17,158 nucleotides of DNA, from assembly GCA_039804165.1 (NCBI GenBank), contig JBDRZZ010000031.1, positions 1 to 17,158 on the forward strand, in the 5' to 3' direction. Within the stretch, counting starts at the first letter, position 1, and each line of letters begins with the position of its first letter. The translations under genes and the position numbers were made by a program. Below are positions 296-15,748 of this stretch, piece by piece. The stretch is from a candidate division WOR-3 bacterium (lineage in GTDB: Bacteria > Hydrothermota > UBA3072). A model generated the notes under the pieces. That model was given only the letters and a program-made list of their open reading frames with translations. It was not told the origin of the DNA and made no database searches.

Positions 296-916
296 TTACT
301 GGAAATTTTCTTTCATCCAGGCGGCTCTTCGGCAGGTTGGACAGAGAATCTTGTACCAGTCTTCTCTTAAAAATTCTTCAGGCTCAATCAATTTGCCTTC
401 AAATTCTGCGATACTCATATCAGTATATTTTGATAGAACAATAGTGGGATTTGCAAAGGCTTTTTCTCCAAGTCTCTCACCAATCCACTCAAGATGCAAT
501 TTTGTCGTTATAATCTCACCGCATTTTTCGCACAAAACCAGTTCGTCTTCAACTTCCTGAATTGCATTTTTCCTGTCAAAAGTGTTTTTGGAATAGTTAT
601 TTGTATATTTAATACCTTTACCGGTTGTGCATAAAGCTCCACATTGTCCGCAGAGAAGACAGACATCATAAAGAAATCTCATTTTTCTGAATTTCTTTCC
701 GTCTTTTTCGGACTCTTCAACTTCAATGGCTCTTGCAGGGCAGACTTCAGCGCAAGCTCCACAGCGGACACACCCATCTTCCTGGTATTCAGGGAAACCT
801 CTGTATTCAGGAATAATATTAGGTGACTCAAAAGGAAATTTTGTCGTAAAAGGTCCTTTAATAAGAGCCCTTATTGCTTCCCCAAGTTCTCTGACTTTCG
901 GTTTTTTTATCCTCAT
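296..916 (-). CDS. HycF/HyfH/NuoI-type 2x[4Fe-4S] ferredoxin subunit of group 4 hydrogenase
   Basis: This 206-aa protein has two [4Fe-4S] motifs, C49-C52-C55-C59 (CVRCGACAEVCP) and C86-C89-C92-C96 (CLLCGQCGALC), the arrangement seen in NuoI, MbhN and HycF. In those complexes this subunit carries electrons towards the cluster of the NuoB-like small subunit at the membrane arm. A C-terminal extension carries a CxxC at 129/132 and another at 192/195 (CPTCRRA), which matches the extra CxxC pair of E. coli HycF/HyfH better than MbhN or NuoI. That pair could bind a metal, perhaps zinc. It is the last gene of the operon, 2 nt after mnhG and far from the other hydrogenase subunits. No strong terminator follows it. 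Confidence 0.88.
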   Translation of the reverse strand: MRIKKPKVRELGEAIRALIKGPFTTKFPFESPNIIPEYRGFPEYQEDGCVRCGACAEVCPARAIEVEESEKDGKKFRKMRFLYDVCLLCGQCGALCTTGKGIKYTNNYSKNTFDRKNAIQEVEDELVLCEKCGEIITTKLHLEWIGERLGEKAFANPTIVLSKYTDMSIAEFEGKLIEPEEFLREDWYKILCPTCRRAAWMKENFQ

Positions 917-918
917 TT

Positions 919-1251
919 TTATCTTCCTTTATCTTCCTTCAACTTATCCATTTTACTTCCTTCCCACAGTTTAAATCCTCCTAAATGAGAACCTCTTGAA
1001 AGAGCATGGGCTGCTGTCGGAGAGGTGAGCAGGATAAATATTATACAAATCAAAGCCTTTATTCCACCAACGCTCACAATACCCATTTCCAGAGCTACAC
1101 CAAATAGTATTGCACAGGTTCCAAGAGTAACCGACTTTGTCGCAGCCTGCAGACGATTGTAAATATCAGGTAGCCTGATAAGACCAAGACATCCCAATAA
1201 ATCAAAAATAACCCCAACAATGACAAAACTTAAAGCAAGATTATTACTCAT
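919..1251 (-). CDS. mnhG: Mrp/Mnh antiporter subunit G
   Basis: Small membrane protein (110 aa from the chosen start) of the MnhG/MrpG/PhaG family, with about three hydrophobic segments. Family signatures visible are GCLGLIRLPDIYNRLQAATK near the N-terminus and LTSPTAAHALSR after the third segment, followed by a charged tail. MnhG is an accessory subunit of the multi-subunit Na+/H+ antiporter; its Mbh counterpart is MbhC. The frame extends upstream to 1296, but the ATG at 1251 has a strong GGGAGGGG site just upstream and gives the usual length. This start overlaps the end of mnhF by 8 nt, indicating translational coupling. Confidence 0.9.
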   Translation of the reverse strand: MSNNLALSFVIVGVIFDLLGCLGLIRLPDIYNRLQAATKSVTLGTCAILFGVALEMGIVSVGGIKALICIIFILLTSPTAAHALSRGSHLGGFKLWEGSKMDKLKEDKGR

Positions 1252-1501
1252 CGAAACCCCTCCCTTCAAGGAATTTGACAAGGGCAAGAGTTCCAATAAA
1301 AGAAAGGATTGACCAAGAAATAGCTATATAGAGATAAAAATCTCTTTTTTCGTAAGCCGCAAAAAGAGCGCACATACCAATCACGAGAATACCAAGTATG
1401 TCTATGGCAACCATTCTGTCAGGCGGGGTTGGTCCCACAAGGACTCTATAAAGACACATAAAAGATGCAATTATTAAACAAATAAATAAAAAAGTAAACA
1501 T
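1244..1501 (-). CDS. mnhF: Mrp/Mnh antiporter subunit F
   Basis: An 85-aa hydrophobic protein with three predicted membrane segments and the family signature RVLVGPTPPDRMVAIDILG after the first one. It matches MnhF/MrpF/PhaF (MbhB in Pyrococcus Mbh), a small subunit of the membrane sodium/proton antiporter module. The length is normal for the family. Its ATG shares one base with the TAA of mnhE (TAATG), and its 3' end overlaps the mnhG start, so E, F and G are translationally linked. The order E-F-G is the standard Mrp order. Confidence 0.92.
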   Translation of the reverse strand: MFTFLFICLIIASFMCLYRVLVGPTPPDRMVAIDILGILVIGMCALFAAYEKRDFYLYIAISWSILSFIGTLALVKFLEGRGFDE

Positions 1502-1989
1502 TATTCGAAAATCCTCCTTAACATTCTTTCAAATCTACCTAAGATTATTTCTCTTTGGACTTCCGGGTCATCACTTATAATGTTTATCCAGTGCACATAA
1601 AAATTTTCACCGTCAACCTCTACGGTGAGAGTTCCTGGAGTTAGCGTTATTGAATTGGCGAGAATTACCTTTGCAAATTCATTTTTAAGTTTCGTTTTCA
1701 CCTTAACAATTCCCGGATTTATTGGTAGAGAAGGGTTTAAAACCCTGTAAGCAACATCAAAATTAGCGAGAATTATGTAATACACGAGATAAGGTATATA
1801 AAGAAGAGCAAAAAAGAACCTTTTTGGTTGTAATAACTTTATAATATCCTCCGGGAAAAGTTTACGCGTAAGGATAGTGATAAATAAGGCTACTAAAACT
1901 CCAGCCATAATATCCTGAAGTTTTAAGGACCAGGTCAGTAGAACCCACATTATAAAGTATATGATAAACTGGGCAAATTTTTTCTTCAT
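1501..1989 (-). CDS. mnhE: Mrp/Mnh antiporter subunit E
   Basis: 162 aa from the chosen start. The N-terminal half has two to three membrane segments. The C-terminal half is a soluble domain with the MnhE signature NSITLTPGTLTVEVDGENFY near residues 107-126, then HWINI. The family is MnhE/MrpE/PhaE (MbhA in Mbh), which contributes to assembly or function of the cation/proton antiporter. The open frame reaches 2070, but the ATG at 1989 makes a 4-nt ATGA overlap with the mnhD stop and begins MKKKFAQFII, a normal N-terminus. The longer start would overlap mnhD by 85 nt and add a non-hydrophobic leader, so I rejected it. Confidence 0.9.
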   Translation of the reverse strand: MKKKFAQFIIYFIMWVLLTWSLKLQDIMAGVLVALFITILTRKLFPEDIIKLLQPKRFFFALLYIPYLVYYIILANFDVAYRVLNPSLPINPGIVKVKTKLKNEFAKVILANSITLTPGTLTVEVDGENFYVHWINIISDDPEVQREIILGRFERMLRRIFE

Positions 1990-3473
1990 ATCCCAAGCAC
2001 CGATGAAATATAGCCTAATTGGTTTAATATGACACTCTCTGCGGGTATAATCAGGCTTTCTATTATCCAACCGTTAAAGATTCCTACAAAAAGACAAAAA
2101 ATAGCCAGAATTATTAGAGGCATTAACATCGCAAAAGGTGCTTCTCGAACATTTCTCGTATTTGAAGTTAATTCCCCAAAAATAACATTTTTCTGGAACC
2201 GAAGATAATAAGCTAAAGTCAAAAAAGAAGTCAAAATAAGAAGCACACCTAGCCATATATAACCCGCTGAAAAAGCAGCAAGAATTATTATCAACTTACT
2301 CCAGAAACCATTAAAGGGCGGCACTCCAGCAATAGAAAGAGAGCCTATAACTGACACCCCTGATGTGACTGGCATAATTTCTCGTAAGCTCCCAAGTTCG
2401 GATAATTTTCTCGTTCCTCTACACCTCTCAATTGCACCTGATGAAAGAAAAAGAAGCGATTTAAATCCTGCGTGATTGAATAGATGGAAAAGGGAACCGA
2501 TAATAGCAAAAGGAGTGCCTATTCCAATTCCTACAACTACATAACCCATCTGGCTAATTGAAGAAAAAGCGAAGATTCTTTTTATATCATCCTGCCCAAA
2601 ACCCATTAAAGCTCCAACCACCATTGAGATACTACCCATTACAATAAGAATATTTGAAATAATCGGATTCATTCCAATCATGTTATAGAAAACCCGGACG
2701 AGAGAATAAATCCCGAGAACCTTAATCAAAACACCTGAAAGCATCACTGATATAGGAGCCGGAGCCGAAGAATGAGCATCAGGTAACCAGGCATGGAAAG
2801 GCACAAGACCTGCTTTAAGACCAAAACCAACAATAAATAAGCCAACAACCATTAAAACCGATTTATTGGAACCATCAGGATTAATTTCAAGAAGAAATCT
2901 CGCAACATCAGCCATATTAAGCGAACCAGTCACTGCGTAAATCATTCCAATCCCAAATAAAATCAGTATTGAAGCAAAAGCCCCTAATATCAAATACTTA
3001 AACGAAGCCTCCAATTCTTCAGCATCTACCCCATAACCTACAAGAGCATATGATGCGATGGACGCAATCTCAAGAAATACAAATAGATTGAATAAATCTC
3101 CCGTGAGCACAACCCCATTCATCCCTGCAAGCATAAATAAAAATAAAGTGAAAAACCTAAGATAATCTTCATATTTTTTAATATATGAGAACGAATAAAT
3201 TAAAGCAAGAGAGGCTATTCCGTTAGTAATCAGTAACATAAGTTGGGCAAGATAATCTTTTACTAAAATAACTCCAAAAGGAGGTTTCCATCCACTCATT
3301 TCGTGAACAATGGTCTCTTTACCCCAGACGAGAGCGAGGATAACGAGTAATGAAATAGAAGTGAGAATTGACCATATTCTCGGAAAGTGTTTCTTGTCAA
3401 ACTTTCCTATAATCAAAATAAAAATTGCGCTGAATACAGGAATCGCTATAAATAGTGGTAATAAGGCGCTCAT
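1986..3473 (-). CDS. mnhD: Mrp/Mnh antiporter subunit D (NuoN/M-like)
   Basis: A 495-aa polytopic membrane protein of the NuoL/M/N-MrpA/D superfamily, about 14 helices. Ion-channel residues are in place: E135 in LFVFLEIAS (TM5 Glu), K220 in FGLKAGLVPFHAWLPDAHS (TM7 Lys), K251 (TM8 Lys), H330/H334 and K393 in GFWSKL (TM12 Lys). These residues form the cation/proton path in complex I and Mrp antiporters. The equivalent in Pyrococcus Mbh is MbhH, the subunit that docks the hydrogenase to the Mrp module. It lies 2 nt after mnhC. With the 619-aa protein at 4851-6710 it is the second large antiporter-like subunit in the operon. Confidence 0.93.
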   Translation of the reverse strand: MSALLPLFIAIPVFSAIFILIIGKFDKKHFPRIWSILTSISLLVILALVWGKETIVHEMSGWKPPFGVILVKDYLAQLMLLITNGIASLALIYSFSYIKKYEDYLRFFTLFLFMLAGMNGVVLTGDLFNLFVFLEIASIASYALVGYGVDAEELEASFKYLILGAFASILILFGIGMIYAVTGSLNMADVARFLLEINPDGSNKSVLMVVGLFIVGFGLKAGLVPFHAWLPDAHSSAPAPISVMLSGVLIKVLGIYSLVRVFYNMIGMNPIISNILIVMGSISMVVGALMGFGQDDIKRIFAFSSISQMGYVVVGIGIGTPFAIIGSLFHLFNHAGFKSLLFLSSGAIERCRGTRKLSELGSLREIMPVTSGVSVIGSLSIAGVPPFNGFWSKLIIILAAFSAGYIWLGVLLILTSFLTLAYYLRFQKNVIFGELTSNTRNVREAPFAMLMPLIILAIFCLFVGIFNGWIIESLIIPAESVILNQLGYISSVLGI

Positions 3474-3475
3474 CT

Positions 3476-3826
3476 CTAACCTCTAAGCCTATTTATCTCG
3501 TCCATATCAAAAGTTCCGTATCTCTCGTAAAGTCTAATAGCCATTGCAACCATTAATGCAAGAGTCCCAAGTCCGATAACGATAGAAGTTAGAACCAGAG
3601 CCTGTGGCAAAGGGTCAACAGCAGTGCGAATAAAGGTCTCGAAGTCCATATCTTTAGTCAGAATAGGAGGAATTCCAGATTTTTTGAATCCAAGGAGTAC
3701 GAGAAAAAGATTAACCGAATATTCCATTATTGCAACTCCAAGAATCTTTTTAACAATATGTCTCTTTACCACAAGAGCATATAAACCTATACTTAACAAC
3801 ACGAAATCAAGAAAATATAAAGTCAT
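3476..3826 (-). CDS. mnhC: Mrp/Mnh antiporter subunit C (NuoK-like)
   Basis: A 116-aa protein with three membrane segments. It contains the NuoK/MnhC core (KKILGVAIMEYSVNLFLVLL), with a Glu in the second segment, and the signature ALVLTSIVIGLGTLALMVAM in the third. The family is MnhC/MrpC (MbhG in Mbh), homologous to complex I NuoK, and takes part in ion translocation. The ATG is preceded by GGAGGT six bases upstream and overlaps the mnhB stop by 4 nt (ATGA). The insert between segments two and three (GIPPILTKDMDFETF) is ordinary for MnhC. Confidence 0.92.
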   Translation of the reverse strand: MTLYFLDFVLLSIGLYALVVKRHIVKKILGVAIMEYSVNLFLVLLGFKKSGIPPILTKDMDFETFIRTAVDPLPQALVLTSIVIGLGTLALMVAMAIRLYERYGTFDMDEINRLRG

Positions 3827-4281
3827 TTTTCGACCTCCGTAACCACTCTCTGAAGTATTGATAGAGCAAGGAAAACAATATAAAGACTCATCCCTACCTT
3901 CAATGTTATTGCAAGGTTATACAAGATAATACTACCCGCAGAAAACAAATTGAAAGGAGTTCCTTTTGGGAGAAAATTGAAGAGAAATTTTCCACTAAAC
4001 CATAAACCAATTAGCCCAAGAATAAGAAAAGCAAGAGCCCCAAAATCATCGGCAATAGAACCCGCCATTCCTGAAACCATACTTTCCACAACTTTCCTTC
4101 CATAAGCAAGGGTTATGAGTATATACGCAAGAGCAATCATCACTCCTCCAGGAAAACCTCCTCCAGGAGTGATATGTCCATAGAGAACAATGTAAGCCCC
4201 AAAAACAAGCATAAACCCAACCATTACATTGGTTATATTTTTCACAATAAAAGTCATTCCTGAATTTTTCTTTTTTTTCAT
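3823..4281 (-). CDS. mnhB: Mrp/Mnh antiporter subunit B
   Basis: A 152-aa membrane protein with four predicted helices and the diagnostic MnhB motif GHITPGGGFPGGVMIALAYI (about residues 35-54). The family is MnhB/MrpB, called MbhF in the Pyrococcus membrane-bound hydrogenase. It begins 1 nt after the fused mbhD-E gene. The N-terminus is very basic (MKKKKNSG), so an internal ATG at residue 9 is an alternative start. The neighbours on both sides are Mrp/Mbh genes, so its role in the antiporter module is secure; whether Na+ or H+ is moved cannot be read from this sequence. Confidence 0.92.
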   Translation of the reverse strand: MKKKKNSGMTFIVKNITNVMVGFMLVFGAYIVLYGHITPGGGFPGGVMIALAYILITLAYGRKVVESMVSGMAGSIADDFGALAFLILGLIGLWFSGKFLFNFLPKGTPFNLFSAGSIILYNLAITLKVGMSLYIVFLALSILQRVVTEVEK

Positions 4282-4282
4282 T

Positions 4283-4846
4283 TTAATGCTCCCTATCTAT
4301 CCGTAAGAAATCCTTATGCTGCTCACGTTTCCATCTGCGTAGTATTGCAAAAGCACCACTAATTGAAACAAAAAGCACCATTGCTTCTCCAAAAGTGTCA
4401 TAGGCTCTGTAATCGAGAATGACAGAGGTTACAAAATTGGTTGCTCCCACATCCCGCAGTCCATTATTTAAATAATAATTTGAAATTCTCATTAGAGGCT
4501 CTCCAAAGGGAGGAAGAGATCGAAATGCAAACCAGGCAAAAACAAGTATTACTCCCACAAAAATGAGAGTGGTTCTATTGGAAAGAACGTGTTCTTCCTT
4601 CTTTTCTATAGAAACATTGTCCACATTTATTGTTGAACGAATAAGGATTATTAAGGATAAAATCTCCACAATGACCTGAGTTATCGCTATATCTGGAGCA
4701 CCAAGAAATAAAAACATAATTGAGAGAATAAAACCCACAGAACCAATAGCTATGACAGCAGAAAGCATATTCTTGATTTCTATTGTAATAATAGAACCTA
4801 TTATCATAAAAACAAGTAAAATATGTAAAATAATTATGGTTTCCAT
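4283..4846 (-). CDS. Fused MbhD-MbhE (DUF4040 plus MbhE domains; MrpA C-terminal part)
   Basis: 187 aa. Residues 4-72 form three hydrophobic segments with the DUF4040/MbhD signature FLGAPDIAITQVIVEILSLI. A charged linker follows (about 75-92). Residues 94-170 carry a membrane segment and the MbhE signature NFVTSVILDYRAYDTFGEAM. In Pyrococcus Mbh these are two proteins, MbhD and MbhE; in bacterial MrpA both form the C-terminal extension of the NuoL-like domain. Here they are fused to each other but separated by a 4-nt gap from the NuoL-like gene just upstream. The gene starts after a GAGAGGT site. Confidence 0.85.
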   Translation of the reverse strand: METIIILHILLVFMIIGSIITIEIKNMLSAVIAIGSVGFILSIMFLFLGAPDIAITQVIVEILSLIILIRSTINVDNVSIEKKEEHVLSNRTTLIFVGVILVFAWFAFRSLPPFGEPLMRISNYYLNNGLRDVGATNFVTSVILDYRAYDTFGEAMVLFVSISGAFAILRRWKREQHKDFLRIDREH

Positions 4847-4850
4847 ATTT

Positions 4851-6710
4851 TTAACCTCTCATTAAAATGGACATTATTATCATTAATCCTATAATACACC
4901 AAGATAGATAGGTTGACAAGATTCCATCATGCAAATTTTTTAATTTTTCGACAATTGATTTCCATCCTATAATTTTTGTTATATTGTACAAATCATAGGA
5001 GCCCCTATCGCAATCCTTAAGAAAAGTTCCTATAAAGGGAAGTTCAAAAATCGTAAGATAAAGACCTGTCCCGGGGAATCTTCTCTCCTCAAGCCCAAAC
5101 TTCTCCCCACCGGTAAATATTGATTCTTCTCTATAATTAAATATTTTCCCAAACAAATATAACCCAACGCCGATTACAAGACCAATAATCAAAGCCACGG
5201 TAGCCTCGTATGGTTTCCATAGTGTATTGGTAAAACTAAGACCTGCTAAGACTTCTGCTGGAGAAATCTTTGCAAGGACATTAAATTCCATCGGTATAAA
5301 GAAATAATTCATCGAAAACCCAGGAAAAATACCGAAGAAAATACAGAGAATTGCCAAAACAGAAATTGGTCCTGTCATCAACAAAGAAGGCTTTCCAGCT
5401 TTTTCAAAAATATTCGAAGCACCTCCAAAATAAACAGAATAAATGACCTTCAAAAAAGAAGCAAGAGTTAAAGCACTTCCAAAAACTGCAAGAACAAGAA
5501 ATACAGGTTGTCCTGCTAAAAGCACACCCTGATAAACCATCCACTTAGAGGTAAAACCATTCAAAGGCGGAACTCCGGATATAGCAAGAGCAAGAATCAG
5601 ATTGGAAATCATCATAAATGGCATTTTTCGATACAAGCCTCCCAATTCTTCCAATTCTGTTGTTCCTGTTTCCTTCTCAATAGCCCCAGCACATAGAAAA
5701 AGACCACCTTTGTATATTACATTGTTAAGCATATGAAATAAACCACCCAAAACCCCAACTGGATTTCCCGTTGCAATGCCAAGAACCATATAACCAACCT
5801 GACTAACAGCATGATAGGACAACAATTTCTTGAGATTGTGCTGAATTAGAGCCAGAAGAACTCCAATAATGATTGTGAGAGCACCTATGAGCATAACGAT
5901 AAAGGTTAAGATTGGTTGGACAGAAAATAATTTTAACATTGCGAGAGATAAAAGATAAATACCGAGTAATTTATCAAGAGAACCAGGGATAAAAGCCACC
6001 ATTGAAACAGGAGCCTCTTCCGAAATATCAGGAATCCAGGTGTGAAAAGGAATAGCCCCGGCTTTTGCAAGAGCTGAGATAACAAAAGAGAAGAACGCTA
6101 CTCTGGGAAGAACCCCTTCTGTAGAAATAGAAATTAAATCTATATCCAGATTCCCTATAGTTACCCAGATATAAATAACACCAAAGAGGAAAAATGCATC
6201 TGCAAAACCAAGAATAACATAGGTTTTTCGAGCTGCCTCGGAAATCCCCTTGCCTTTGCCAAGATTGATGTAAAGAAAGAAAACAGCCGTAACCATTTCC
6301 CAGAAAGTTAGCAGGAATAATAAATTTGAAGAAAGAAATACACCCGAAGCTCCCGAAAGAGTCCAGAGGAAATAAGTTAGAAATTGATTATCTCCTGTCA
6401 CCACTTCATCTCTGGAGCGAATAATGTATATAGAAACTAAAAATCCAATAAGATAGGTGAATAAAAGCATAAAACCACTAATCTGATTGAGTTTGAGAGT
6501 CCAATCTGCCCTATAATTTAAAAATTTGAAAGATAATAAACTCTCTACTACACCTCCTAAATTAAACAAACGGTAAGAAAGAATAAGCAAATAAAGAGTT
6601 ACTGCAACAGTTAGCGATTGTTTAAATCTTTTTAACCTCGGGACAATCAAAGTGAAAATCCCTGCAAGGAAAGGTATTATTATTGGATACAACAGTATAT
6701 TACCACCCAT
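4851..6710 (-). CDS. NuoL/HyfB/MrpA-like proton-translocating antiporter subunit
   Basis: A 619-aa polytopic protein of the NuoL/M/N superfamily. Expected channel residues are E138 (LTFWEMVTA), K216 (ALAKAGAIPFHTWIPD), K247 (SLDKLLGIYLL), H326, K334 and K389 (GFTSKW). The PFHTWIPDISEEAP and SLDKLLGIYLL stretches resemble HyfB, Mbx and Ech-type NuoL subunits. The C-terminal extension (about 540-619, with LHDGILSTYLSWC) also looks like that of hydrogenase-associated NuoL proteins. It directly precedes the MbhD-E gene; together the two would make an MrpA of normal size, so a split MrpA is an alternative reading. The ATG shares one base with the large-subunit stop and has GGAG five bases upstream. 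Confidence 0.9.
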   Translation of the reverse strand: MGGNILLYPIIIPFLAGIFTLIVPRLKRFKQSLTVAVTLYLLILSYRLFNLGGVVESLLSFKFLNYRADWTLKLNQISGFMLLFTYLIGFLVSIYIIRSRDEVVTGDNQFLTYFLWTLSGASGVFLSSNLLFLLTFWEMVTAVFFLYINLGKGKGISEAARKTYVILGFADAFFLFGVIYIWVTIGNLDIDLISISTEGVLPRVAFFSFVISALAKAGAIPFHTWIPDISEEAPVSMVAFIPGSLDKLLGIYLLSLAMLKLFSVQPILTFIVMLIGALTIIIGVLLALIQHNLKKLLSYHAVSQVGYMVLGIATGNPVGVLGGLFHMLNNVIYKGGLFLCAGAIEKETGTTELEELGGLYRKMPFMMISNLILALAISGVPPLNGFTSKWMVYQGVLLAGQPVFLVLAVFGSALTLASFLKVIYSVYFGGASNIFEKAGKPSLLMTGPISVLAILCIFFGIFPGFSMNYFFIPMEFNVLAKISPAEVLAGLSFTNTLWKPYEATVALIIGLVIGVGLYLFGKIFNYREESIFTGGEKFGLEERRFPGTGLYLTIFELPFIGTFLKDCDRGSYDLYNITKIIGWKSIVEKLKNLHDGILSTYLSWCIIGLMIIMSILMRG

Positions 6711-7921
6711 TATATCTCCATTCTGTAAAGAGGAGGCGTTTTACCCAATTTTTTTATAATATCTTTTGTTTTCTCTACGCTCAATTTCAGCAATTCTTTC
6801 TCTCCAAGGATCTTCTTATTGTTGTTCTTATCAATAACCGCAACCCTTTCTGTACAACAATAACAGGGATCAATGGAAGCGGTTATAAGAGCAACATCTG
6901 CAATTGTCTCTCCCTTGCAGGAGGCTTTAAAAGTTGGCAGATTATTGAAAGTAGGAGCCCTTATCTTATGTCGATAAGGCATATTCGAACCATCGCTTCG
7001 CACATAATGAAAAACTTCACCTCTCGGAGCTTCATAACGACCACAACCTTCACCAGGTGGAACCTCTCTAATATCCGCATCAATTGGACCTTCCGGTAAA
7101 CTCGAAAGAGCCTGTTTTATCATAGAGATAGACTCAAAACATTCAAGAAGACGAACAACACCTTTACTGAAAACATCCCCATCTTCTTGAACAATAACCT
7201 TCCACTTAAGGTCTTTATATCCATCAAGAGGTTCATCTTTTCTAACATCAAAAGGCACTCCTGACCCCCTAGCTGTAGGACCAACTGCAGAATAAAGAAT
7301 CGCATCTTCTTTTTTCAAAACACCAATTCCTTTGAGTCTTTTGTGAATCACAGGGTCATCGAGAATCGCATCTGTAAGCATCTGGATAGGTTTCTCAACT
7401 TCAACAATCCGTTCCAACCCGTATTCAATCTGCTCTTTATTAAAATCTCTTCTAACTCCACCTGGTTTAAACATTGCATAATGATTTCTGTTACCAGTCA
7501 ATTTCTCACAAATTTCCAGGATTGTCTCTCTGTATTTCCAAGCCCACATCCAAACAGTATTATATCCAATAAAATGCCCTGCAAGACCAACCCAGAGGAG
7601 ATGAGAATGGAGTCTTTCTAATTCACAAACAACAACTCTAATCAGCTGAGCTCTTTTCGGAACTTCACAACCAAGGAGATCTTCCACAGCAAGGCAATAA
7701 GCCATTGGATGGGAAGTTGAACAGATTCCGCAGATTCTTTCAACAAGATATGCAACTTGGTCCCATGTTTTACCTTCGGACAATTTCTCAACCCCCCTGT
7801 GATTATAACCGATTTCAACATCAAGATCAACCACTCTTTCACCTTCAACGTAAAGTTTGAAGTGTTCGGGTTCTTCAAGGAGTGGATGATATGGACCAAT
7901 TGGAATTATCGTTTCTTTCAT
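6710..7921 (-). CDS. mbhL: Group 4 [NiFe] hydrogenase large (catalytic) subunit, NuoD/HycE-like
   Basis: 403 aa, homologous to complex I NuoD, but it keeps both Ni-binding motifs: C64/C67 in ERICGICSTSHP and C353/C356 in DPCYCCTER. NuoD lacks these, so this is a true hydrogenase subunit that reduces protons or oxidises H2 in the cytosolic arm of the complex. N-terminal EIGYNHRGVEKL and ERLHSHLLWVG are typical for group 4. After R359 there is a 44-residue tail, as in HycE, where a HycI-type protease cuts just after the equivalent Arg during maturation. The start overlaps the NuoC-like gene by 4 nt (ATGA). The exact subgroup (Mbh, Mfh or other) would need a tree. Confidence 0.93.
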   Translation of the reverse strand: MKETIIPIGPYHPLLEEPEHFKLYVEGERVVDLDVEIGYNHRGVEKLSEGKTWDQVAYLVERICGICSTSHPMAYCLAVEDLLGCEVPKRAQLIRVVVCELERLHSHLLWVGLAGHFIGYNTVWMWAWKYRETILEICEKLTGNRNHYAMFKPGGVRRDFNKEQIEYGLERIVEVEKPIQMLTDAILDDPVIHKRLKGIGVLKKEDAILYSAVGPTARGSGVPFDVRKDEPLDGYKDLKWKVIVQEDGDVFSKGVVRLLECFESISMIKQALSSLPEGPIDADIREVPPGEGCGRYEAPRGEVFHYVRSDGSNMPYRHKIRAPTFNNLPTFKASCKGETIADVALITASIDPCYCCTERVAVIDKNNNKKILGEKELLKLSVEKTKDIIKKLGKTPPLYRMEI

Positions 7922-8391
7922 TTAGATAACCTCTCGTAATCTTTTTCAGTCACATCCGAATGCTTAAAATCTTTCCGTAAGGGATATTTACCCTTCGGAA
8001 ACGACTCTGCAAGAAGAAGTCTTCTAAGATCAGGATGCCCTTTAAAATTGACTCCGAGCATTTCACTTATTTCCCTTTCAATCCATAAAAAAGCGGGAAT
8101 TTTTTTCCCAATTGAATCTATTTCCAATTTAGGATAAGGAACAAGTGTCTTTACATTTATTAACATATTTTTATCATCCCTTGCAAGATGGTAAATTATT
8201 TCTATACCTTCTCTTGTATCAATTCCTGTAGCTGTGCATAATCTACATTTATATTTAAAAAATAAATACTCTACAACTTTAGGAGCTTTATCTAACTCAA
8301 CCTTTATATATATTCGGTTATTCCGAACTTGAGCAATATCTAAAAATTCACCTTTAAGCTTCGCCTTCAATTCTTTTAACACTTCTTTCAT
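7918..8391 (-). CDS. mbhK: NuoC-like 30-kDa hydrogenase subunit (MbhK / HycE N-domain type)
   Basis: 157 aa with the complex I 30-kDa signature near the C-terminus (ISEMLGVNFKGHPDLRRLLL, then KGKYPLRKDF). In Ech, Mbh and complex I this subunit supports the large subunit structurally and carries no cofactor. Here it is a separate gene, whereas in E. coli HycE it is the N-terminal domain of the large subunit. It follows the small-subunit gene by 2 nt and overlaps the large-subunit gene by 4 nt. The N-terminal half is poorly conserved, which is usual for this family. Confidence 0.9.
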   Translation of the reverse strand: MKEVLKELKAKLKGEFLDIAQVRNNRIYIKVELDKAPKVVEYLFFKYKCRLCTATGIDTREGIEIIYHLARDDKNMLINVKTLVPYPKLEIDSIGKKIPAFLWIEREISEMLGVNFKGHPDLRRLLLAESFPKGKYPLRKDFKHSDVTEKDYERLSK

Positions 8392-8393
8392 TT

Positions 8394-8825
8394 TTAAATT
8401 GCTCCTAGTCCCATAATAATTCCTTCAATCATTGCCTCTGGTTTTGGAGGACAGCCTGGAACATACACAATTTTAACCTCAGGATCAACTTCTTTTAAAA
8501 CTTTATCTACAGGTCCTACTACTGAGTAACTACCTCGGAAAATTCCAGAAGAACAACCACAAGATCCAAAAGCAATAACCAAACAAGGTTTTGGAGTTTG
8601 ACGATAAACTTCGATCAATCTTGGTTTAGCGTGAGCATTAACTGAACCGCAGACAAGTAAAGCATCTGCATGACGAGGACTCCCAACCAATTTTATCCCG
8701 AATCTTTCCACATCATATCTTGGAGTAAGAAGCTCCAAGACTTCTATATCACAATTATTACAGGCCGCAGTAGACAGATGAAAAACCCATATAGATTTCT
8801 TGAATGATTTCTTCAAAATGTTCAT
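8394..8825 (-). CDS. mbhJ: [NiFe] hydrogenase small subunit, NuoB-like (MbhJ type)
   Basis: 143 aa of the NuoB/HycG/EchC/MbhJ family. The four cysteines for the proximal [4Fe-4S] cluster are C22 and C25 (STAACNNCDIEVL), C89 (AFGSCGC) and C125 (YVPGCPPKPEAM). The cluster passes electrons between the ferredoxin subunits and the Ni-Fe site. The protein is short, as in Ech and Mbh, without the N-terminal extensions of periplasmic hydrogenases and without a Tat signal, so it faces the cytosol. The gene starts immediately after the NuoH-like stop, with GGGAG upstream. Confidence 0.93.
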   Translation of the reverse strand: MNILKKSFKKSIWVFHLSTAACNNCDIEVLELLTPRYDVERFGIKLVGSPRHADALLVCGSVNAHAKPRLIEVYRQTPKPCLVIAFGSCGCSSGIFRGSYSVVGPVDKVLKEVDPEVKIVYVPGCPPKPEAMIEGIIMGLGAI

Positions 8826-9731
8826 CTATACTCCCAAATAAGCAAGGATCCCCGCAAGAATGCTTGCCCCTGTCAACCATCCCCAGAAATATCTCATAAC
8901 CTGATCAATCCGGAGTCTAGGATTCGTATTTTTAATAAGAATCAATAAAAACACAATGAGTAAGTATAAAAGGATTCCACCTAAAATTCCTCTTCCCCAG
9001 AAAAGAATTACTAAAAACATAGGTAATCCAAAAAGCATTATTGCTTTACTCAATTCATAAAGAGCCAAAAGACTCCCAGAGAGTTCAAGAAGAATACCAG
9101 ATCCAAGCTCCGTTTCTGCTTCAGGTAAGTCAAAAGGAACTCTCCCTAACTTCGCTTGAATGCATATAACAGAAACAATAAAACCTATTATTCCATACCA
9201 ATTAAATAAATTAGGTCCATTAATAATTTGCCAGTCCATAATGGATTTAATAGAAAATCCTCTAACTTTTGAAGTAATCATAACAATCAAAATAACCATA
9301 GGAAGTTCATAAGATAAAAGAAGCTTTATTTCTCTTGAAACTCCAACAGAACTTAATGGATTTCCAGAGAGCGATCCTATGTAAATAATAGCTATTGAAG
9401 GAATAGTAAACAAATACCAAACCACAATAATGTCTCCAATAAAACCTTCACTCAGCTTAAAATACCCTGTAAGAAGGATTGTGACCCCAAGACAAACACT
9501 AGCAAGTGCAAAAAGAGGACCCAAAACAAATCCTAAACTAGAAGCCTCTTTTGGGATTATCACTTCTTTATAAAGTAACTTTCCAATATCTGCAAAACCC
9601 TGAAACCATGGAGGACCTTCCCTCCATTGAATCCTCGCAGATATTTTCCTATCAAGCCAGCTTATAATTAACCCAATAAAAGAGGAGAAAACAAATCCAG
9701 GAAATATTAGATAATAAAATAAAAGCTTCAT
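8826..9731 (-). CDS. mbhM: NuoH-like membrane anchor subunit of group 4 hydrogenase (HycD/EchB/MbhM type)
   Basis: 301 aa with about eight membrane helices. NuoH-family signatures are DRKISARIQWREGPPW (residues 27-42), ADIGKLLYKE (47-56), GVSREIKLLLSYELPM (130-145), RVPFDLPEAETELGSG (197-212) and NTNPRLRIDQ (268-277). This subunit anchors the hydrogenase arm to the membrane and links redox chemistry to ion movement. The frame can be read from a TTG at 9743, but the ATG at 9731 is better: it has GGAG about seven bases upstream and gives a 4-nt ATGA overlap with the upstream ferredoxin gene. Confidence 0.93.
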   Translation of the reverse strand: MKLLFYYLIFPGFVFSSFIGLIISWLDRKISARIQWREGPPWFQGFADIGKLLYKEVIIPKEASSLGFVLGPLFALASVCLGVTILLTGYFKLSEGFIGDIIVVWYLFTIPSIAIIYIGSLSGNPLSSVGVSREIKLLLSYELPMVILIVMITSKVRGFSIKSIMDWQIINGPNLFNWYGIIGFIVSVICIQAKLGRVPFDLPEAETELGSGILLELSGSLLALYELSKAIMLFGLPMFLVILFWGRGILGGILLYLLIVFLLILIKNTNPRLRIDQVMRYFWGWLTGASILAGILAYLGV

Positions 9732-10228
9732 AATCGTCTCCAAGGTCTTGCTTTAATTCTTGATTCTACCCTATTTATTTCTTTCTGATCCTCATAACTC
9801 ATTTCTTCAAAAGAAAGAGCCCCACTTGTGCAAGTCTGAACGCATCTTGGTTCCTCCCCTTCTTCTAACATATCATAACAAAGATCACATTTAGAAACAA
9901 CGTGCCGAACTCTTTTAACTTCCAAAACACCAAAAGGGCAAGCAATTGTGCAAGAAAGACATCCAATGCATCTAAAAGTATTATGATAAATGATACCATC
10001 TTCTCTTCTCTCTAAAGCTTCTACAGGGCAAACCTGAACACAAGCAGGATCCGAACAATGCTTACAATGAATAGGGAGATCAATTATAACGTCAAACCCA
10101 GCTCGAGAAAGGCAAAATCTCTCTGAATGACTCTCATAACAAGCAACATCACAAGCATGGCAAGAAATGCATCTATCTACATCAAGAACAACTCTCTTCC
10201 CTTTCTGATTTTCTTTACCTTCATTCAT
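9728..10228 (-). CDS. HycB/HydN/CooF-type ferredoxin with four [4Fe-4S] clusters
   Basis: 166 aa with sixteen cysteines in four groups: 20/23/26/30, 55/58/63/67, 87/90/93/97 and 114/117/129/133. This is the DMSO-reductase beta-subunit-like pattern found in HycB, HydN, CooF and FdhB. Such proteins form an electron wire between an oxidoreductase and the hydrogenase small subunit. It has no signal peptide, so it is cytosolic. Its place between the Fdh-like gene (8-nt overlap) and the NuoH-like gene (4-nt overlap) matches its expected role as connector between the peripheral module and the hydrogenase core. Confidence 0.9.
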   Translation of the reverse strand: MNEGKENQKGKRVVLDVDRCISCHACDVACYESHSERFCLSRAGFDVIIDLPIHCKHCSDPACVQVCPVEALERREDGIIYHNTFRCIGCLSCTIACPFGVLEVKRVRHVVSKCDLCYDMLEEGEEPRCVQTCTSGALSFEEMSYEDQKEINRVESRIKARPWRRL

Positions 10229-11876
10229 CTATTTTAATCCTCGCTTTTTCAACACCCACTGAAATAAGACCATCCTCATCTACTTCTAAAGAGAATAATT
10301 TCCTAACCTCTGGAAAATGAACCGGAGCCAAAATCATATTCTCCTCTACCTCAAAGCCCAACAATTTGCAATCTGCAACTTTAAAAAAAGAAGAACCATT
10401 CGGTGTTTCAACCTTTATTTTTTCCTCTTTTATTTTTTTACTCTCTTTAGAATTAATAAAAACATATGGAATTTCTCCTTCATTCCATTTCATTCTCCGT
10501 GTGACCTCTCCCCCATCATAATGATAAGGAAGACCAATTCCAATCAAATAAAAAGGAAATTCTTTGGTGAGAATAGAAGATAGTTTTCTTTCTCTTTTCT
10601 CTTCTCTAAATGGAAGTGGTTTTAGACTTTTCACCTCCGCTTTAGTTTTTTCTCCTGTGATTTTAAACAAGAACTTACTTACAAAATCTCCACTAGAAAT
10701 ACAAGCTCCTGGCTTAGGAATAGGGTTTCCCAAATTTACGACTTTCTCCTCCAAAGAAATAATTGAACCTTCTTTCTCAAAAGAAAATACAGTGGGAATT
10801 ATACACTCAGACGAATTTTTACCCTTAAAATAACAAGTGGAAAGCACAAAATTCAGATAACCAAAAATTTTTTCAAAATCTGGAATGAACTCAAACGGAT
10901 TTCCTCCCAAAACGATAAGACCTTCTAATTTTTTTTCTTTCAAAGCCTTAATAACATTTGCATTATTGAAATTACCTATAACTCTTCCAACTCCGAGAGA
11001 ATTTTGCCCTACTGGAATAACGGCAAATTTCGCATTAGTAATATTCGCAATTTCTGAAAGTTTTCTCACAATAGAATAAGGCCTAAGAAAATGACCATAA
11101 ATGTTAGAAAAAAGAATATATCCATTTTTCGCATTCTTAAGAGCTTTTTCTAACATCTCTGCTTTCCCACTCGAAATTCCTATATTTTCCTCTAACTTAA
11201 ACTCACTTTTACCTTTAAGATAATCCAAAAAACAGGTAAGAAAATAACTCAAATATTCTGGTTTTACTTCTAAATGTTCAGCAAAAAGAGAAACTTTATT
11301 TTTCATTATGTCCAAAGAAATCAAACGATTCCCTCTTTTTTTATTACGAGCATTAAGGATTAGCTTTGCAAGAGTTGGGGAGTTAGAAAATACGTCTCCC
11401 ACTACTAATATTAAATCTGCCTCGGCTAATTCGTTAAAGGAAAGATTATTTTTTATACACAATAAAGCTTCATCTTCAAAAGGAAAGAGACCTAAAAGAT
11501 CAGTATTAAGAAGTTCCGAAAGCCTCTTTGCCAAAAAGGCTTCTTCAAGAGTATGATTACCACTAATTAAAATTGCAATATTATTCTTCTTCTCTCTCAT
11601 TCTCTTAAATTCTTTAATAGAGTCTTCTATAGCTTCTTCAATTGAAGTAGTTTTCCCAAAAAGTTCTGCTTCGCGTAGACGATAAGGAGTATTCAAAATT
11701 TCTATTGTGAAATTCCCTCTTGCACACAAACCCCTCCCATTTCTTTTATCATAATAAAGCCTAAACAAAGAATCCCTTCCAAATACCGCAGAGTTAGAAT
11801 CTTCCCTTTTTAGGGTCAAATCATCCTGCATTGAGCAAAAAGAACACTTTGTCCGGTATTCTTTAACAGAAGACAT
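10221..11876 (-). CDS. Degenerate molybdopterin oxidoreductase-like protein (FdhA/NuoG-like), probably non-catalytic
   Basis: 551 aa, shorter than formate dehydrogenase alpha subunits (about 680-720). The N-terminal cluster motif has C11, C14 and C51 (CARGNF), but the third cysteine position holds Asp (CSFCSMQDD, D18). Middle: ILISGNHTLEEAFLAKRL and AEADLILVVGDV fit the molybdopterin oxidoreductase fold. The C-terminal dinucleotide-binding domain is recognisable at 451-461 (YHYDGGEVTRR). The segment that carries catalytic Sec or Cys followed by His in FdhF/FdhA is shortened and has no such pair. It therefore more resembles a NuoG-like scaffold or electron relay than an active formate dehydrogenase. 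It overlaps hydG by 14 nt and the ferredoxin gene by 8 nt. Confidence 0.8.
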   Translation of the reverse strand: MSSVKEYRTKCSFCSMQDDLTLKREDSNSAVFGRDSLFRLYYDKRNGRGLCARGNFTIEILNTPYRLREAELFGKTTSIEEAIEDSIKEFKRMREKKNNIAILISGNHTLEEAFLAKRLSELLNTDLLGLFPFEDEALLCIKNNLSFNELAEADLILVVGDVFSNSPTLAKLILNARNKKRGNRLISLDIMKNKVSLFAEHLEVKPEYLSYFLTCFLDYLKGKSEFKLEENIGISSGKAEMLEKALKNAKNGYILFSNIYGHFLRPYSIVRKLSEIANITNAKFAVIPVGQNSLGVGRVIGNFNNANVIKALKEKKLEGLIVLGGNPFEFIPDFEKIFGYLNFVLSTCYFKGKNSSECIIPTVFSFEKEGSIISLEEKVVNLGNPIPKPGACISSGDFVSKFLFKITGEKTKAEVKSLKPLPFREEKRERKLSSILTKEFPFYLIGIGLPYHYDGGEVTRRMKWNEGEIPYVFINSKESKKIKEEKIKVETPNGSSFFKVADCKLLGFEVEENMILAPVHFPEVRKLFSLEVDEDGLISVGVEKARIKIDE

Positions 11877-12696
11877 TTGGATAATCCTTTATATCTGCAT
11901 AACACATATCTGGACCATCTTTACAGAGATAATAAGGTCCAATATTACACCTTGCACATTTACCAAAACCACAACTCATTCTTCTATTCATAGAAAGATA
12001 AATCTGCTCAGGCTTAAAACCAACTTCAAGTAATTTAAAAGTTACAAATTTAAGCATCACATCCGGACCACAAGAAACCACATAAGAATTTTTAATATCT
12101 ATCCCTATTTTCTTCAGATAATCTTTCTCAAGAAGACAAGTCACAAGACCCACAGTCCCTTTCCACTTAGGATGAGATTCATCAATTGTCAGATTAAGAG
12201 AAACTTTTTTCTTCCTTTCCCAATCCTTATACTCATCTTTAAAACACTGATCTTCTGGACTCTTAGCTCCATAGCAAATATAAATTTGCTTTATTTCCTC
12301 AATTCTATCAAATAGGGCATAAATTAAAGACCTTAAAGGGGCAAGCCCAACACCTCCACCTACAATAAGAATTTCTTTTCCTATGAATTTCTCTATAGGG
12401 TATCCTTTTCCAAAAGGTCCTCGCAAGCCAAGAAAATCACCTACTTTAACTTCTTTATGCAACACACTAGTAACTCTTCCAGTTCTCATAATTGTAATTT
12501 CCATCTCTTCCACTTCTCCAGGAGAAGAAGAAGGAGTAAAAGGAGCTTCTCCAACACCAGGAACAGTAAGTTGCATAAACTGCCCTGCTCTAAAGCTCAA
12601 CTTCTTATCCAATTTAAGACGATAGGTCTTAATTTTAGGTGTTTCTTCTTTTATTTCTTTAACCACTCCTTTATGAGGATAATATATATTTTCCAT
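11863..12696 (-). CDS. hydG: HydG/AsrB-like FAD-NAD(P)-[2Fe-2S] oxidoreductase (hydrogenase gamma-type subunit)
   Basis: 277 aa of the ferredoxin-NADP reductase superfamily. Residues 1-100 form the FAD domain with GEAPFTPSSSP (49-59), a variant of the RxYS flavin motif, and RGPFGKGYP. Residues 108-240 form the pyridine-nucleotide domain (GGGVGLAP at 113-120; CGPDVM near 229). The C-terminus has a [2Fe-2S] motif, C242-x4-C247-x2-C250-x7-C258, as in sulfhydrogenase gamma, AsrB and PyrK. It probably exchanges electrons with NADH or NADPH; which one cannot be decided by eye. It shares one base with the hydB stop (TAATG), so the two are a translationally linked pair, as in sulfhydrogenases. Confidence 0.88.
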   Translation of the reverse strand: MENIYYPHKGVVKEIKEETPKIKTYRLKLDKKLSFRAGQFMQLTVPGVGEAPFTPSSSPGEVEEMEITIMRTGRVTSVLHKEVKVGDFLGLRGPFGKGYPIEKFIGKEILIVGGGVGLAPLRSLIYALFDRIEEIKQIYICYGAKSPEDQCFKDEYKDWERKKKVSLNLTIDESHPKWKGTVGLVTCLLEKDYLKKIGIDIKNSYVVSCGPDVMLKFVTFKLLEVGFKPEQIYLSMNRRMSCGFGKCARCNIGPYYLCKDGPDMCYADIKDYPNVFC

Positions 12697-13760
12697 TATC
12701 TTTTAACCCCTTCTAACGCCCCTAAGAAGACCTCTCTCATATCTATTCCACCAAGGCAATTATCAATGCATCTACCACATCCTGTGCATTTATAAACACC
12801 GAATTTTTTATAAAAACGGAAAAATTTATGATAATATCTATTCTTAAATTGATCTATGTGAGAAAAACGTGGATTTAAACCCCCGGCCATTTGAGAAAAT
12901 CCCTTAAACTGACAAGAATCCCAAACCATAAACCTTTTATAATTATTCTCTTTTTCTCCTTTTCTATCAAAAAGAGTAAAACAATAACAAACTGGGCAAA
13001 CATTTGTGCAAGCTCCACAAGAAACACAAGCACTTCCTAATTCCCACCCAGAGTCGGAATCAAAAGCTTGTTCAGCTATTGATTCTAAATAAAAAAATGC
13101 TTTTGAGAATTCTCTATTTTGCTTTTCTAATTTATCTTTTACCTTTCTCCTTTTTTCATCTCTTTCTCTAAGTTCCTTCTTTCCAGCCTGATTCAAGGAT
13201 AGATTCTTAGAAATCTCCTCTCCTATTTTACTCCCAATTTCTAATAAATAAAATTCTTTAAGCTCTACAATATTAATATCGAAACCTTTCTCAGGATAGG
13301 GGGAAAAACCTAAAACATTACAAAAACAACTATCAAGAGAATCACCACAATCAGAAGATATTAAAATTAAAGACTCTCTTCTTTTTTTATAAAAAGGATC
13401 AACGAAAAGAGAATCTTCAAGAAATACCTTGTCAATCATATAAAAAGAATTAAGATCACAAGCCTTAATTCCAAGAAGAACTTCTTTCTCTCCTTTTTCT
13501 CCAATATCTATCCATTTCTCACTTGGATACTCTGCCACCTTAAATCTGCCTGGAAGAACGAAAGACTTAAAGTTATCAAAAGTTCTAACCTTAGGAATAT
13601 AGTAATCTGAAAAATTATCTTTAATTTCACGAACAAAACGCCTTGTCTTAGAACCTCTATTAGAAAAAATCTCTTTCTCCCAAGAAGCAAAAACTCTCCC
13701 GTATCCGAGAAGGACCTCTATAAAATTTTTAATTCTATTTTTATCCAACAAAACTTCCAT
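12696..13760 (-). CDS. hydB: HydB/AsrA-like iron-sulfur protein (hydrogenase beta-type subunit)
   Basis: 354 aa. The N-terminal domain carries GIKACDLNSF (98-106) and ISSDCGDSLDSCFC (134-147), typical of the sulfhydrogenase beta-subunit/AsrA family. The C-terminal part has two [4Fe-4S] motifs: C245-C248-C251-C255 (CVSCGACTNVCP, with extra C258 and C260) and C325-C328-C331-C335 (CTGCGRCIDNC). A charged, lysine-rich segment lies at 192-222. In known complexes HydB takes electrons from the HydG flavin and passes them on. This is the first gene of the operon. The ATG at 13760 has only a weak AG-rich site upstream. Confidence 0.87.
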   Translation of the reverse strand: MEVLLDKNRIKNFIEVLLGYGRVFASWEKEIFSNRGSKTRRFVREIKDNFSDYYIPKVRTFDNFKSFVLPGRFKVAEYPSEKWIDIGEKGEKEVLLGIKACDLNSFYMIDKVFLEDSLFVDPFYKKRRESLILISSDCGDSLDSCFCNVLGFSPYPEKGFDINIVELKEFYLLEIGSKIGEEISKNLSLNQAGKKELRERDEKRRKVKDKLEKQNREFSKAFFYLESIAEQAFDSDSGWELGSACVSCGACTNVCPVCYCFTLFDRKGEKENNYKRFMVWDSCQFKGFSQMAGGLNPRFSHIDQFKNRYYHKFFRFYKKFGVYKCTGCGRCIDNCLGGIDMREVFLGALEGVKR

Positions 13761-13794: not shown

Positions 13795-13806
13795 ATTATG
13801 CGTATA

Positions 13807-15735: not shown

Positions 15736-15748
15736 CAAAGGATTTATA

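What the first reader, a model, noticed from the sequence alone, without database searches (positions are those of the whole stretch)
296..13760. A 17-gene operon for an ion-pumping [NiFe] hydrogenase joined to a HydB/HydG-type NAD(P)H module
The sequence shows, in one tightly overlapping unit, HydB, HydG, a degenerate Fdh/NuoG-like protein, a HycB-type ferredoxin, a complete group 4 hydrogenase core, two large antiporter subunits, MbhD-E, MnhB-G and a HycF-type ferredoxin. Mbh (ferredoxin-driven) and Mfh (formate-driven) complexes with Mrp modules are known. This combination suggests a complex in which a pyridine nucleotide, alone or together with ferredoxin, drives H2 formation coupled to Na+/H+ movement, or the reverse. 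The joint function is inference.
Basis: partly seen in the sequence, partly recalled or inferred. Interest (0 to 1): 0.78.

Follow-up and report, generated by a model that had tools for sequence, protein, structure and literature searches.

The report
Ion-pumping hydrogenase with NAD(P)H module
An uncultured bacterium carries a 17-gene operon for a membrane enzyme that probably links NAD(P)H to hydrogen gas while moving sodium or protons; this cluster type has been noted before in candidate phyla, but what feeds it electrons was never shown, and its NAD(P)H-handling genes turn out to be its constant partner.

Summary
Window 296-13760 (minus strand) holds 17 overlapping genes: HydB, HydG, a degenerate formate-dehydrogenase/NuoG-like protein, HycB-type polyferredoxin, a group 4 [NiFe] hydrogenase core with all Ni ligands, two large antiporter subunits, fused MbhD-E, MnhB-G and HycF. 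The organism belongs to candidate division WOR-3; no other hydrogenase was found in its genome.

Related clusters in over ten phyla keep HydB-HydG directly upstream in 59 of 60 readable cases, with invariant Fe-S ligands. In WOR-3, HydG lies within 10 kb of this large-subunit clade in 60 of 73 cases, against 0 of 30 for other NuoD-like proteins. The NuoG-like protein is optional (8 of 60) and lacks catalytic motifs.

Best explanation: a reversible, ion-coupled NAD(P)H:H+ oxidoreductase. Function is inferred, not shown. The architecture is not new: it was described in Saganbacteria in 2019 (PMC6349859), and HydDB lists a near relative's group (4g) as of undetermined role, putatively ferredoxin-coupled. 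The data favour NAD(P)H as redox partner of this clade, which makes an open question testable.

The parts
12696..13760 (-). HydB/AsrA-like Fe-S subunit, 354 aa; 15 invariant Cys (ligands for three [4Fe-4S] clusters expected)
   Evidence: Pfam PF17179; NCBIfam ShyB/AsrA/HydB all below cut-off; best solved relative P. furiosus sulfhydrogenase 1 beta 9nez_B, E 1.6e-33; 15 Cys conserved in 69/69
11863..12696 (-). HydG/AsrB-like FAD/NAD(P)-binding subunit with C-terminal [2Fe-2S], 277 aa
   Evidence: PF00970, PF00175, PF10418; best solved relative 9nez_C, E 2.7e-48; Cys242/247/250/258 in 74/74, GGGxG motif conserved
10221..11876 (-). degenerate formate-dehydrogenase/NuoG-like subunit, 551 aa; one Fe-S site C11-C14-D18-C51, no catalytic Cys/Sec
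   Evidence: PF00384; AF2 model pLDDT 79.5, pTM 0.86, FDH fold Z 26-28; motif analysis
11724..11846 (-). codons of the Fe-S ligand set of the NuoG-like protein: Cys11 (11844-11846), Cys14 (11835-11837), Asp18 (11823-11825), Cys51 (11724-11726); Asp18 replaces the third Cys
   Evidence: Asp in all 6 sequences of the window's family and in L054, L055, L056, L061, L065, L066; Cys in 15 other WOR-3 loci and in L078, L084, L094, L117
9728..10228 (-). HycB-type polyferredoxin, 166 aa, four [4Fe-4S] motifs
   Evidence: PF13247 and others; 16 Cys conserved
8826..9743 (-). NuoH/MbhM-like membrane subunit
   Evidence: PF00146, E 1.8e-57
8394..8825 (-). NuoB/MbhJ-like small subunit, proximal [4Fe-4S] (C22, C25, C89, C125)
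   Evidence: PF01058; four Cys in 91/91
7918..8391 (-). NuoC/MbhK-like subunit
   Evidence: PF00329
6710..7921 (-). group 4 [NiFe] hydrogenase large subunit; Ni ligands C64, C67, C353, C356
   Evidence: PF00346 and PF00374; RICGIC and DPCYCCTER motifs; C64, C67, C353, C356 in 96/96; 45% identical to MbhL 6cfw
4851..6710 (-). large antiporter-like subunit A, 619 aa; E138, K216, K247, K389 present
   Evidence: PF00361; 6cfw_H E 3e-47; residue conservation
4283..4846 (-). fused MbhD-MbhE
   Evidence: PF13244 + PF20501
3823..4281 (-). MnhB
   Evidence: PF04039
3476..3826 (-). MnhC (NuoK-like)
   Evidence: PF00420
1986..3473 (-). MnhD, second large antiporter subunit, 495 aa
   Evidence: PF00361; 6cfw_H E 3.2e-82; E135, K220, K393 in 63/64
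1501..2070 (-). MnhE (start probably at the internal ATG, MKKKFAQF)
   Evidence: PF01899
1244..1501 (-). MnhF
   Evidence: PF04066
919..1296 (-). MnhG (start probably internal)
   Evidence: PF03334
296..916 (-). HycF/MbhN-type ferredoxin, two [4Fe-4S] plus a conserved C-terminal CxxC...CxxC site
   Evidence: Pfam Fer4; NCBIfam HycF-type subfamily; 12 Cys in 66/66
13806..13833 (-). sigma-70-like promoter match (TTGACA-16-TAACAT) 46 bases before hydB; weak
   Evidence: number of such matches in the region is not above chance

Best explanation
The operon encodes one membrane complex, a reversible ion-coupled NAD(P)H:H+ oxidoreductase. Electrons pass between NAD(P)H and the FAD of HydG, its [2Fe-2S], the HydB clusters, the NuoG-like [4Fe-4S] where that protein is present, the four HycB clusters, the two HycF clusters, the NuoB cluster and the Ni-Fe site. 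The NuoH/Mrp membrane arm couples this to Na+/H+ movement as in MBH. In this organism, with no other hydrogenase found, the likely use is: pyruvate-type oxidoreductases reduce ferredoxin, Rnf passes the electrons to NAD+ and stores an ion gradient, and this complex disposes of NAD(P)H as H2, pumping ions outward when H2 is very low or NADPH very reduced, and drawing on the gradient when it is not. Shown: gene content, order, conservation of ligands, phyletic linkage, genome context. Inferred: assembly into one complex, electron route, ion coupling, direction. NADH versus NADPH is undetermined.
For: HydB+HydG directly upstream in 59/60 named loci with a readable upstream region. In WOR-3, HydG within 10 kb in 60/73 for this large-subunit clade against 0/30 for other NuoD-like proteins. 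Fe-S ligands invariant: HydB 15 Cys in 69/69, HydG 4 Cys in 74/74, NiFe ligands 96/96. HydB and HydG pairwise distances follow the large subunit (r 0.85, 0.84), as NuoB (0.79) and NuoH (0.75) do. HydB and HydG are closest among solved structures to P. furiosus sulfhydrogenase 1 beta and gamma, its NAD(P)H-side subunits (general knowledge). Large subunit and antiporters are closest to MBH; charged antiporter residues present. One NiFe and no FeFe hydrogenase found; HypD/HypE, Rnf and POR present.
Against: No biochemistry. Physical association of HydBG with the membrane part is not shown. Correlated distances may reflect shared ancestry of whole clusters rather than contact. HydDB and later MAG papers treat 4g as putatively ferredoxin-coupled. 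At standard potentials NADH to H2 is uphill, so outward pumping needs low H2 or a very reduced pool (general knowledge). Some clusters keep the hydrogenase without adjacent HydBG (L040, L054, probably L055). A few genomes have HydG far from the large subunit on long contigs (G076, G137, G138).
Confidence: 0.65

Rival explanations
1. A ferredoxin-driven Mbh-like pump: ferredoxin docks on HycF or HycB, drives H2 formation and ion export; HydB/HydG is a side branch that also lets ferredoxin or H2 reduce NAD(P)+.
For: HycF/NuoB/large subunit/Mrp match MBH; HydDB annotates 4g as putatively ferredoxin-coupled; the 2019 authors proposed an Mbh-like function for the same cluster type; two POR_N genes present.
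Against: MBH needs none of the four extra soluble subunits; HydBG is the constant feature; Rnf already links ferredoxin to NAD+ in this genome.
Confidence: 0.2
2. An electron-confurcating enzyme that needs NADH and reduced ferredoxin together.
For: Many Fe-S clusters and two possible entry points; FDH/NuoG-like domains also occur in the bifurcating NfnABC and StnABC (9bov, 8oh5).
Against: No NfnL-, NuoF- or HdrA-type flavoprotein among the 17 genes; most relatives lack the NuoG-like part.
Confidence: 0.08
3. HydB/HydG (with or without the NuoG-like protein) is a separate soluble enzyme that is merely co-transcribed with a Mbh-type hydrogenase.
For: HydBG-type modules serve several enzymes, e.g. 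anaerobic sulfite reductase and soluble hydrogenases (model names).
Against: 59/60 synteny in many phyla; no AsrC or group 3b large subunit in the operon and no second NiFe large subunit found in the genome.
Confidence: 0.05
4. The third gene is an active Mo/W formate (or other) dehydrogenase, so the complex is a formate hydrogenlyase of the Mfh kind.
For: Formate dehydrogenase fold; a HycB-type partner follows, as in formate hydrogenlyase.
Against: Catalytic Cys/Sec-His segment missing, terminal pterin motif missing, about 140 residues shorter than typical FDHs, protein absent in 52/60 relatives.
Confidence: 0.02

Closest known systems
Saganbacteria RX5A 'enigmatic' group 4 hydrogenase region (PMC6349859, 2019)
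   Same: Hydrogenase subunits, Mrp-like subunits, an unclassifiable molybdopterin-type protein, cooF, asrA and asrB; a Saganbacteria locus here (L084) has HydB-HydG-NuoG-HycB-NuoH-NuoB-NuoC-NuoD-Mrp-HycF in that order.
   Different: Described in Saganbacteria with an Mbh-like function proposed; the window is a WOR-3 member with an Asp18 Fe-S site in the NuoG-like protein. Conservation across phyla was not analysed in the passages read.
HydDB [NiFe] group 4g (PMC5037454)
   Same: Ca. Saelkia tenebricola (L079), listed as Group 4g, Mrp-linked and with a single identifiable hydrogenase (PMC8542988), has the HydB-HydG cluster; window large subunit about 62% identical.
   Different: 4g is a loose class of undetermined role, 'ferredoxin-coupled (putative)'; the HydDB classifier was not run here.
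P. furiosus membrane-bound hydrogenase MBH (6cfw; group 4d)
   Same: Core subunits, MbhD-E, Mrp subunits, HycF-type ferredoxin; large subunit 45% identical.
   Different: MBH lacks HydB, HydG, NuoG-like and HycB and has one large antiporter subunit instead of two (general knowledge).
P. furiosus sulfhydrogenase 1 / soluble hydrogenase I (9nez; group 3b)
   Same: HydB and HydG subunits.
   Different: Catalytic subunits there are soluble group 3b; here group 4, membrane-linked. Window HydB/HydG score far below the equivalog cut-offs.
E. coli formate hydrogenlyase (7z0s/7z0t) and Mrp-linked formate hydrogenlyases (groups 4a/4b)
   Same: FDH-fold protein, HycB-type and HycF-type ferredoxins, group 4 core.
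   Different: FDH-like protein has no catalytic residue; NAD(P)H module added.
Hun, a NiFe hydrogenase-Na+/H+ antiporter supercomplex reported in Atribacteria and others (2021; recalled from memory, paper not held)
   Same: As recalled: a NiFe hydrogenase-antiporter operon in deep-biosphere bacteria.
   Different: Gene content could not be compared (searches gave no access).
FDH-fold proteins reused in electron-transfer complexes: complex I NuoG/Nqo3 (4hea), Elp-Hdr (8rvu), NfnABC/StnABC (9bov, 8oh5)
   Same: Same fold as the NuoG-like protein.
   Different: Different complexes; whether an Asp ligand occurs there was not checked.

Membership tests
Group 4 [NiFe] hydrogenases | Large subunit of the NuoD/MbhL type with two CxxC Ni-ligand motifs | tested here: met
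   RICGIC and DPCYCCTER; 96/96 relatives keep all four Cys
HydDB group 4g | Large subunit assigned to 4g | tested here: inconclusive
   Same clade as Ca. Saelkia (listed as 4g, PMC8542988) in the tree; HydDB itself not available
Saganbacteria RX5A-type cluster (PMC6349859) | Group 4 core + Mrp subunits + asrA/asrB + cooF + molybdopterin-like protein | tested here: met
   Same gene set in window and in Saganbacteria locus L084
MBH (group 4d) | Ferredoxin-only input, no NAD(P)H module | tested here: not met
   HydB, HydG and HycB are part of the conserved cluster; ferredoxin use itself not testable
Mrp-type Na+/H+ module | MbhD-E (MrpA C-part), MnhB-G and a large antiporter subunit with conserved Glu/Lys | tested here: met
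Mrp-type Na+/H+ module | Na+ or H+ translocation | not testable with these tools
   needs membranes or proteoliposomes
Group 3b soluble hydrogenase / sulfhydrogenase | HydB/HydG above equivalog cut-offs with group 3b HydA/HydD | tested here: not met
   129-207 bits against cut-offs of 395-750; no group 3b large subunit found
Anaerobic sulfite reductase AsrABC | AsrA and AsrB above cut-off, AsrC present | tested here: not met
   132 of 323 and 204 of 289 bits; no AsrC among the 17 genes
Formate hydrogenlyase / Mfh | Catalytically competent Mo/W formate dehydrogenase | tested here: not met
   No catalytic Cys/Sec-His, pterin motif lost
Respiratory complex I | NuoE/NuoF module, no Ni ligands | tested here: not met
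   No NuoE/F among the genes; Ni ligands present
Hun supercomplex | Gene content as published | not testable with these tools
   paper not held

The most novel reading that the evidence does not exclude
A large clade of group 4 hydrogenases spread over many candidate phyla is NAD(P)H-linked rather than ferredoxin-linked: an ion-translocating NAD(P)H:H+ oxidoreductase, i.e. a complex I-like machine that ends in H2 instead of quinone and uses a HydB/HydG input module, optionally bridged by a catalytically dead formate-dehydrogenase-fold protein whose Fe-S cluster has an Asp ligand in several lineages.
Probability: 0.6. Interest if true: 0.65.

Novelty: new member of a known kind. Interest (0 to 1): 0.5.

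Why it matters
If true, the redox partner of a widespread, uncharacterised hydrogenase clade is NAD(P)H. That changes energy budgets drawn from many uncultured genomes, where such enzymes are written down as ferredoxin-driven pumps: an NAD(P)H-linked enzyme works near equilibrium, its direction set by H2 and by the ion gradient. It would give syntrophic or fermenting bacteria one machine that balances NAD(P)H, H2 and the Na+/H+ gradient.

Tried and rejected
Active formate dehydrogenase: rejected on missing catalytic and pterin motifs and frequent absence of the gene. Isolated curiosity of one MAG: rejected by synteny in many phyla. Hydrogenase-related complex without NiFe (Mbx/Ehr type): rejected, all four Ni ligands present. 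Vertical inheritance within WOR-3: not supported, the window's family groups with unnamed bacteria and UBP14 rather than with other WOR-3 families (quick tree, SH-aLRT 99). Group placement with only three outgroups (MbhL, HycE, Nqo4) is unreliable: long branches meet, so no group-level tree claim is made. The 2021 Hun paper could not be reached. NADH versus NADPH could not be decided from the HydG loop (GAK/RSP-ED). The 10-kb count uses a truncated HydG list (weakest listed E about 1e-56), so weaker HydG-like genes near the 30 control loci would be missed; most of the 13 clade members without HydG lie on short contigs or near contig ends (inferred from positions, contig lengths not all checked). 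WOR-3 loci were picked by the NuoG-like gene, so NuoG frequency is quoted only from the loci, which were picked by the large subunit.
Full report
1. What is there. Seventeen genes lie head to tail on the minus strand from 13760 down to 296, with overlaps or gaps of a few bases. Domain searches confirm each assignment. In transcription order: HydB-like (12696-13760), HydG-like (11863-12696), NuoG/FDH-like (10221-11876), HycB-like (9728-10228), NuoH (8826-9743), NuoB (8394-8825), NuoC (7918-8391), NuoD/large subunit (6710-7921), antiporter A (4851-6710), fused MbhD-E (4283-4846), MnhB, C, D, E, F, G, and HycF-like (296-916). The window is a whole contig (G000:C31), so the operon's 3' end is 295 bases from the contig end.

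2. Organism. The same-genus genome G127 has the cluster on a contig of 106,459 bases. A contig of the same length, JAFGHJ010000046.1, is named 'candidate division WOR-3 bacterium' and carries the matching 91%-identical large subunit (L063). The window's genome is therefore placed in WOR-3.

3. Conservation. In 147 genomes of the phylum, 70 have a NuoG-like relative, and loci from many families show the whole order. A search of named genomes with the large-subunit alignment gave 80 loci from Omnitrophota, Margulisbacteria, Saganbacteria, Zixibacteria, Aerophobetes, Desantisbacteria, Fermentibacteria/Aegiribacteria, Spirochaetota, Actinomycetota, Planctomycetota, Clostridia and others. In 60 of them the region upstream is readable: HydB and HydG are both present in 59, the NuoG-like gene in 8. 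Where it is missing, HydG directly abuts HycB. The common downstream order is antA-DE-B-C-D-E-F-G-HycF; many WOR-3 families and some Desantisbacteria/Aerophobetes have one more MnhD-like antiporter before antA.

4. Specificity of the NAD(P)H module. In WOR-3 genomes the large-subunit clade (57% identity or more to the window) has a strong HydG match within 10 kb in 60 of 73 cases, median 5.0 kb; other NuoD-like proteins (35-45%) in 0 of 30. Pairwise distances of HydB and HydG correlate with those of the large subunit (0.85, 0.84), at least as well as NuoB (0.79), NuoH (0.75) and HycB (0.81) do. This fits co-inheritance but does not prove contact.

5. Cofactors. Across the aligned loci all Ni ligands (96/96), 15 HydB Cys (69/69), four HydG Cys (74/74), 12 HycF Cys (66/66) and four NuoB Cys (91/91) are invariant. 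HycB keeps four cluster motifs in all NuoG-containing clusters, with some variation in the first (and one Cys of the last) in others. The FAD- and NAD-side motifs of HydG are conserved. Solved relatives: HydB and HydG, sulfhydrogenase 1 beta/gamma 9nez; large subunit, MBH 6cfw then formate hydrogenlyase 7z0s; antiporters, 6cfw_H. Antiporter Lys residues are kept; the TM5 Glu of antiporter A is present in the window but aligns with Gly in 53 of 74 relatives.

6. The NuoG-like protein. Sequence profile and fold say formate-dehydrogenase family (model pLDDT 79.5, pTM 0.86). In the alignments to active enzymes it lacks the Sec/Cys-His segment and the GR..H..TMTR-type pterin motif, and it is shorter (about 535 profile positions against 674-743 aa). 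One Fe-S site remains. Its third ligand is Asp in the window's family (6/6) and in six loci of other lineages, Cys elsewhere. Three Cys plus Asp recalls the Asp-ligated cluster of P. furiosus ferredoxin (general knowledge). A catalytically empty FDH-fold protein is precedented in complex I; the fold also recurs in Elp-Hdr and NfnABC. I read it as a bridge or scaffold, not a catalyst.

7. History. A quick tree of 99 large subunits puts the window's family with unnamed bacteria and UBP14 (SH-aLRT 99), apart from the other WOR-3 families, which suggests horizontal transfer of the whole cluster. The label 'NuoG-like present' needs at least 4 changes on that tree. The three outgroup sequences sit on long branches, so the tree is not used for group assignment.

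8. Genome context. One NiFe large subunit and no FeFe hydrogenase were found, in a genome of 95% estimated completeness. HypD and HypE, RnfC-D-G-E-A, two POR_N genes and a PyrK-like gene are present. This supports, as inference, a chain ferredoxin - Rnf - NADH - this complex - H2.

9. Mechanism. See Best explanation. Energetics (general knowledge): NADH at about -0.32 V cannot reduce protons at 1 bar H2 (-0.41 V) without help; at about 10 Pa H2 the H+/H2 couple is near -0.30 V, so NADPH, or NADH with gradient input, can drive it. The complex should therefore be reversible and sit near equilibrium.

10. Prior art. PMC6349859 (2019) describes in Saganbacteria RX5A an 'enigmatic' group 4 hydrogenase, nearest to Zixibacteria and Omnitrophica, with Mrp-like subunits, an unclassifiable molybdopterin-type oxidoreductase, cooF, asrA and asrB, which 'might compose an oxidoreductase module', and hypothesises an Mbh-like function. 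[quoted passage not shown] PMC8542988 and PMC10290634 follow that reading. From memory, a 2021 paper named a NiFe hydrogenase-Na+/H+ antiporter supercomplex 'Hun'; it is not in the library and was not checked. So the architecture is known; the comparative case for NAD(P)H as partner, the optional nature of the NuoG-like protein and its Asp-ligand variant were not found in the papers read.

11. Verdict. Observation confirmed, interpretation partly supported, new member of a known kind, with an open and testable functional question.

Noticed in passing
window 15722-16948 (+) and 15107-15316 (-): Mutator/IS256-type transposase and an integrase-core (rve_3) remnant upstream of hydB; no similar DNA in the plasmid collection.
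   Followed up: partly
window 14687-15061 (-): 124-aa ORF with a lipobox-like GSVGC stretch and no Pfam match; may be a small lipoprotein or no gene.
   Followed up: no
L054, L055, L040, L041, L042: Clusters with the NuoG-like gene but without adjacent HydB/HydG; L040 has HydB/HydG about 7 kb away behind unrelated genes (ThiC, NAD synthase and others), L041/L042 keep only NuoG-HycB-NuoB together.
   Followed up: partly
L094 7495-8169 and ORFs of like size in L078, L117, L059: A 225-aa ORF between HycB and NuoH in Margulisbacteria-type clusters; the one tested is a TPR protein.
   Followed up: partly
L131 11185-11802 and ORFs of like size in L112, L114, L130: An ORF of about 205 aa between large subunit and antiporter A in some Omnitrophota; the one tested has a PhoU domain, perhaps a regulator.
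   Followed up: partly
L106 3356-5794 and ORFs of like size in L086, L091, L120, L126, L127: Upstream of HydB in some Omnitrophota: an AIRS-family gene (HypE-like) and a NIL-domain two-cluster ferredoxin.
   Followed up: partly
antiporter A, window 4851-6710: TM5 Glu (E138 here) aligns with Gly in 53 of 74 relatives, although the other charged residues are kept; may mark a subunit with an altered ion path.
   Followed up: no
HycF, window 296-916: A fully conserved C-terminal CxxC...CxxC pair (C129, C132, C192, C195; 66/66) beyond the two [4Fe-4S] motifs, probably a mononuclear metal site.
   Followed up: no
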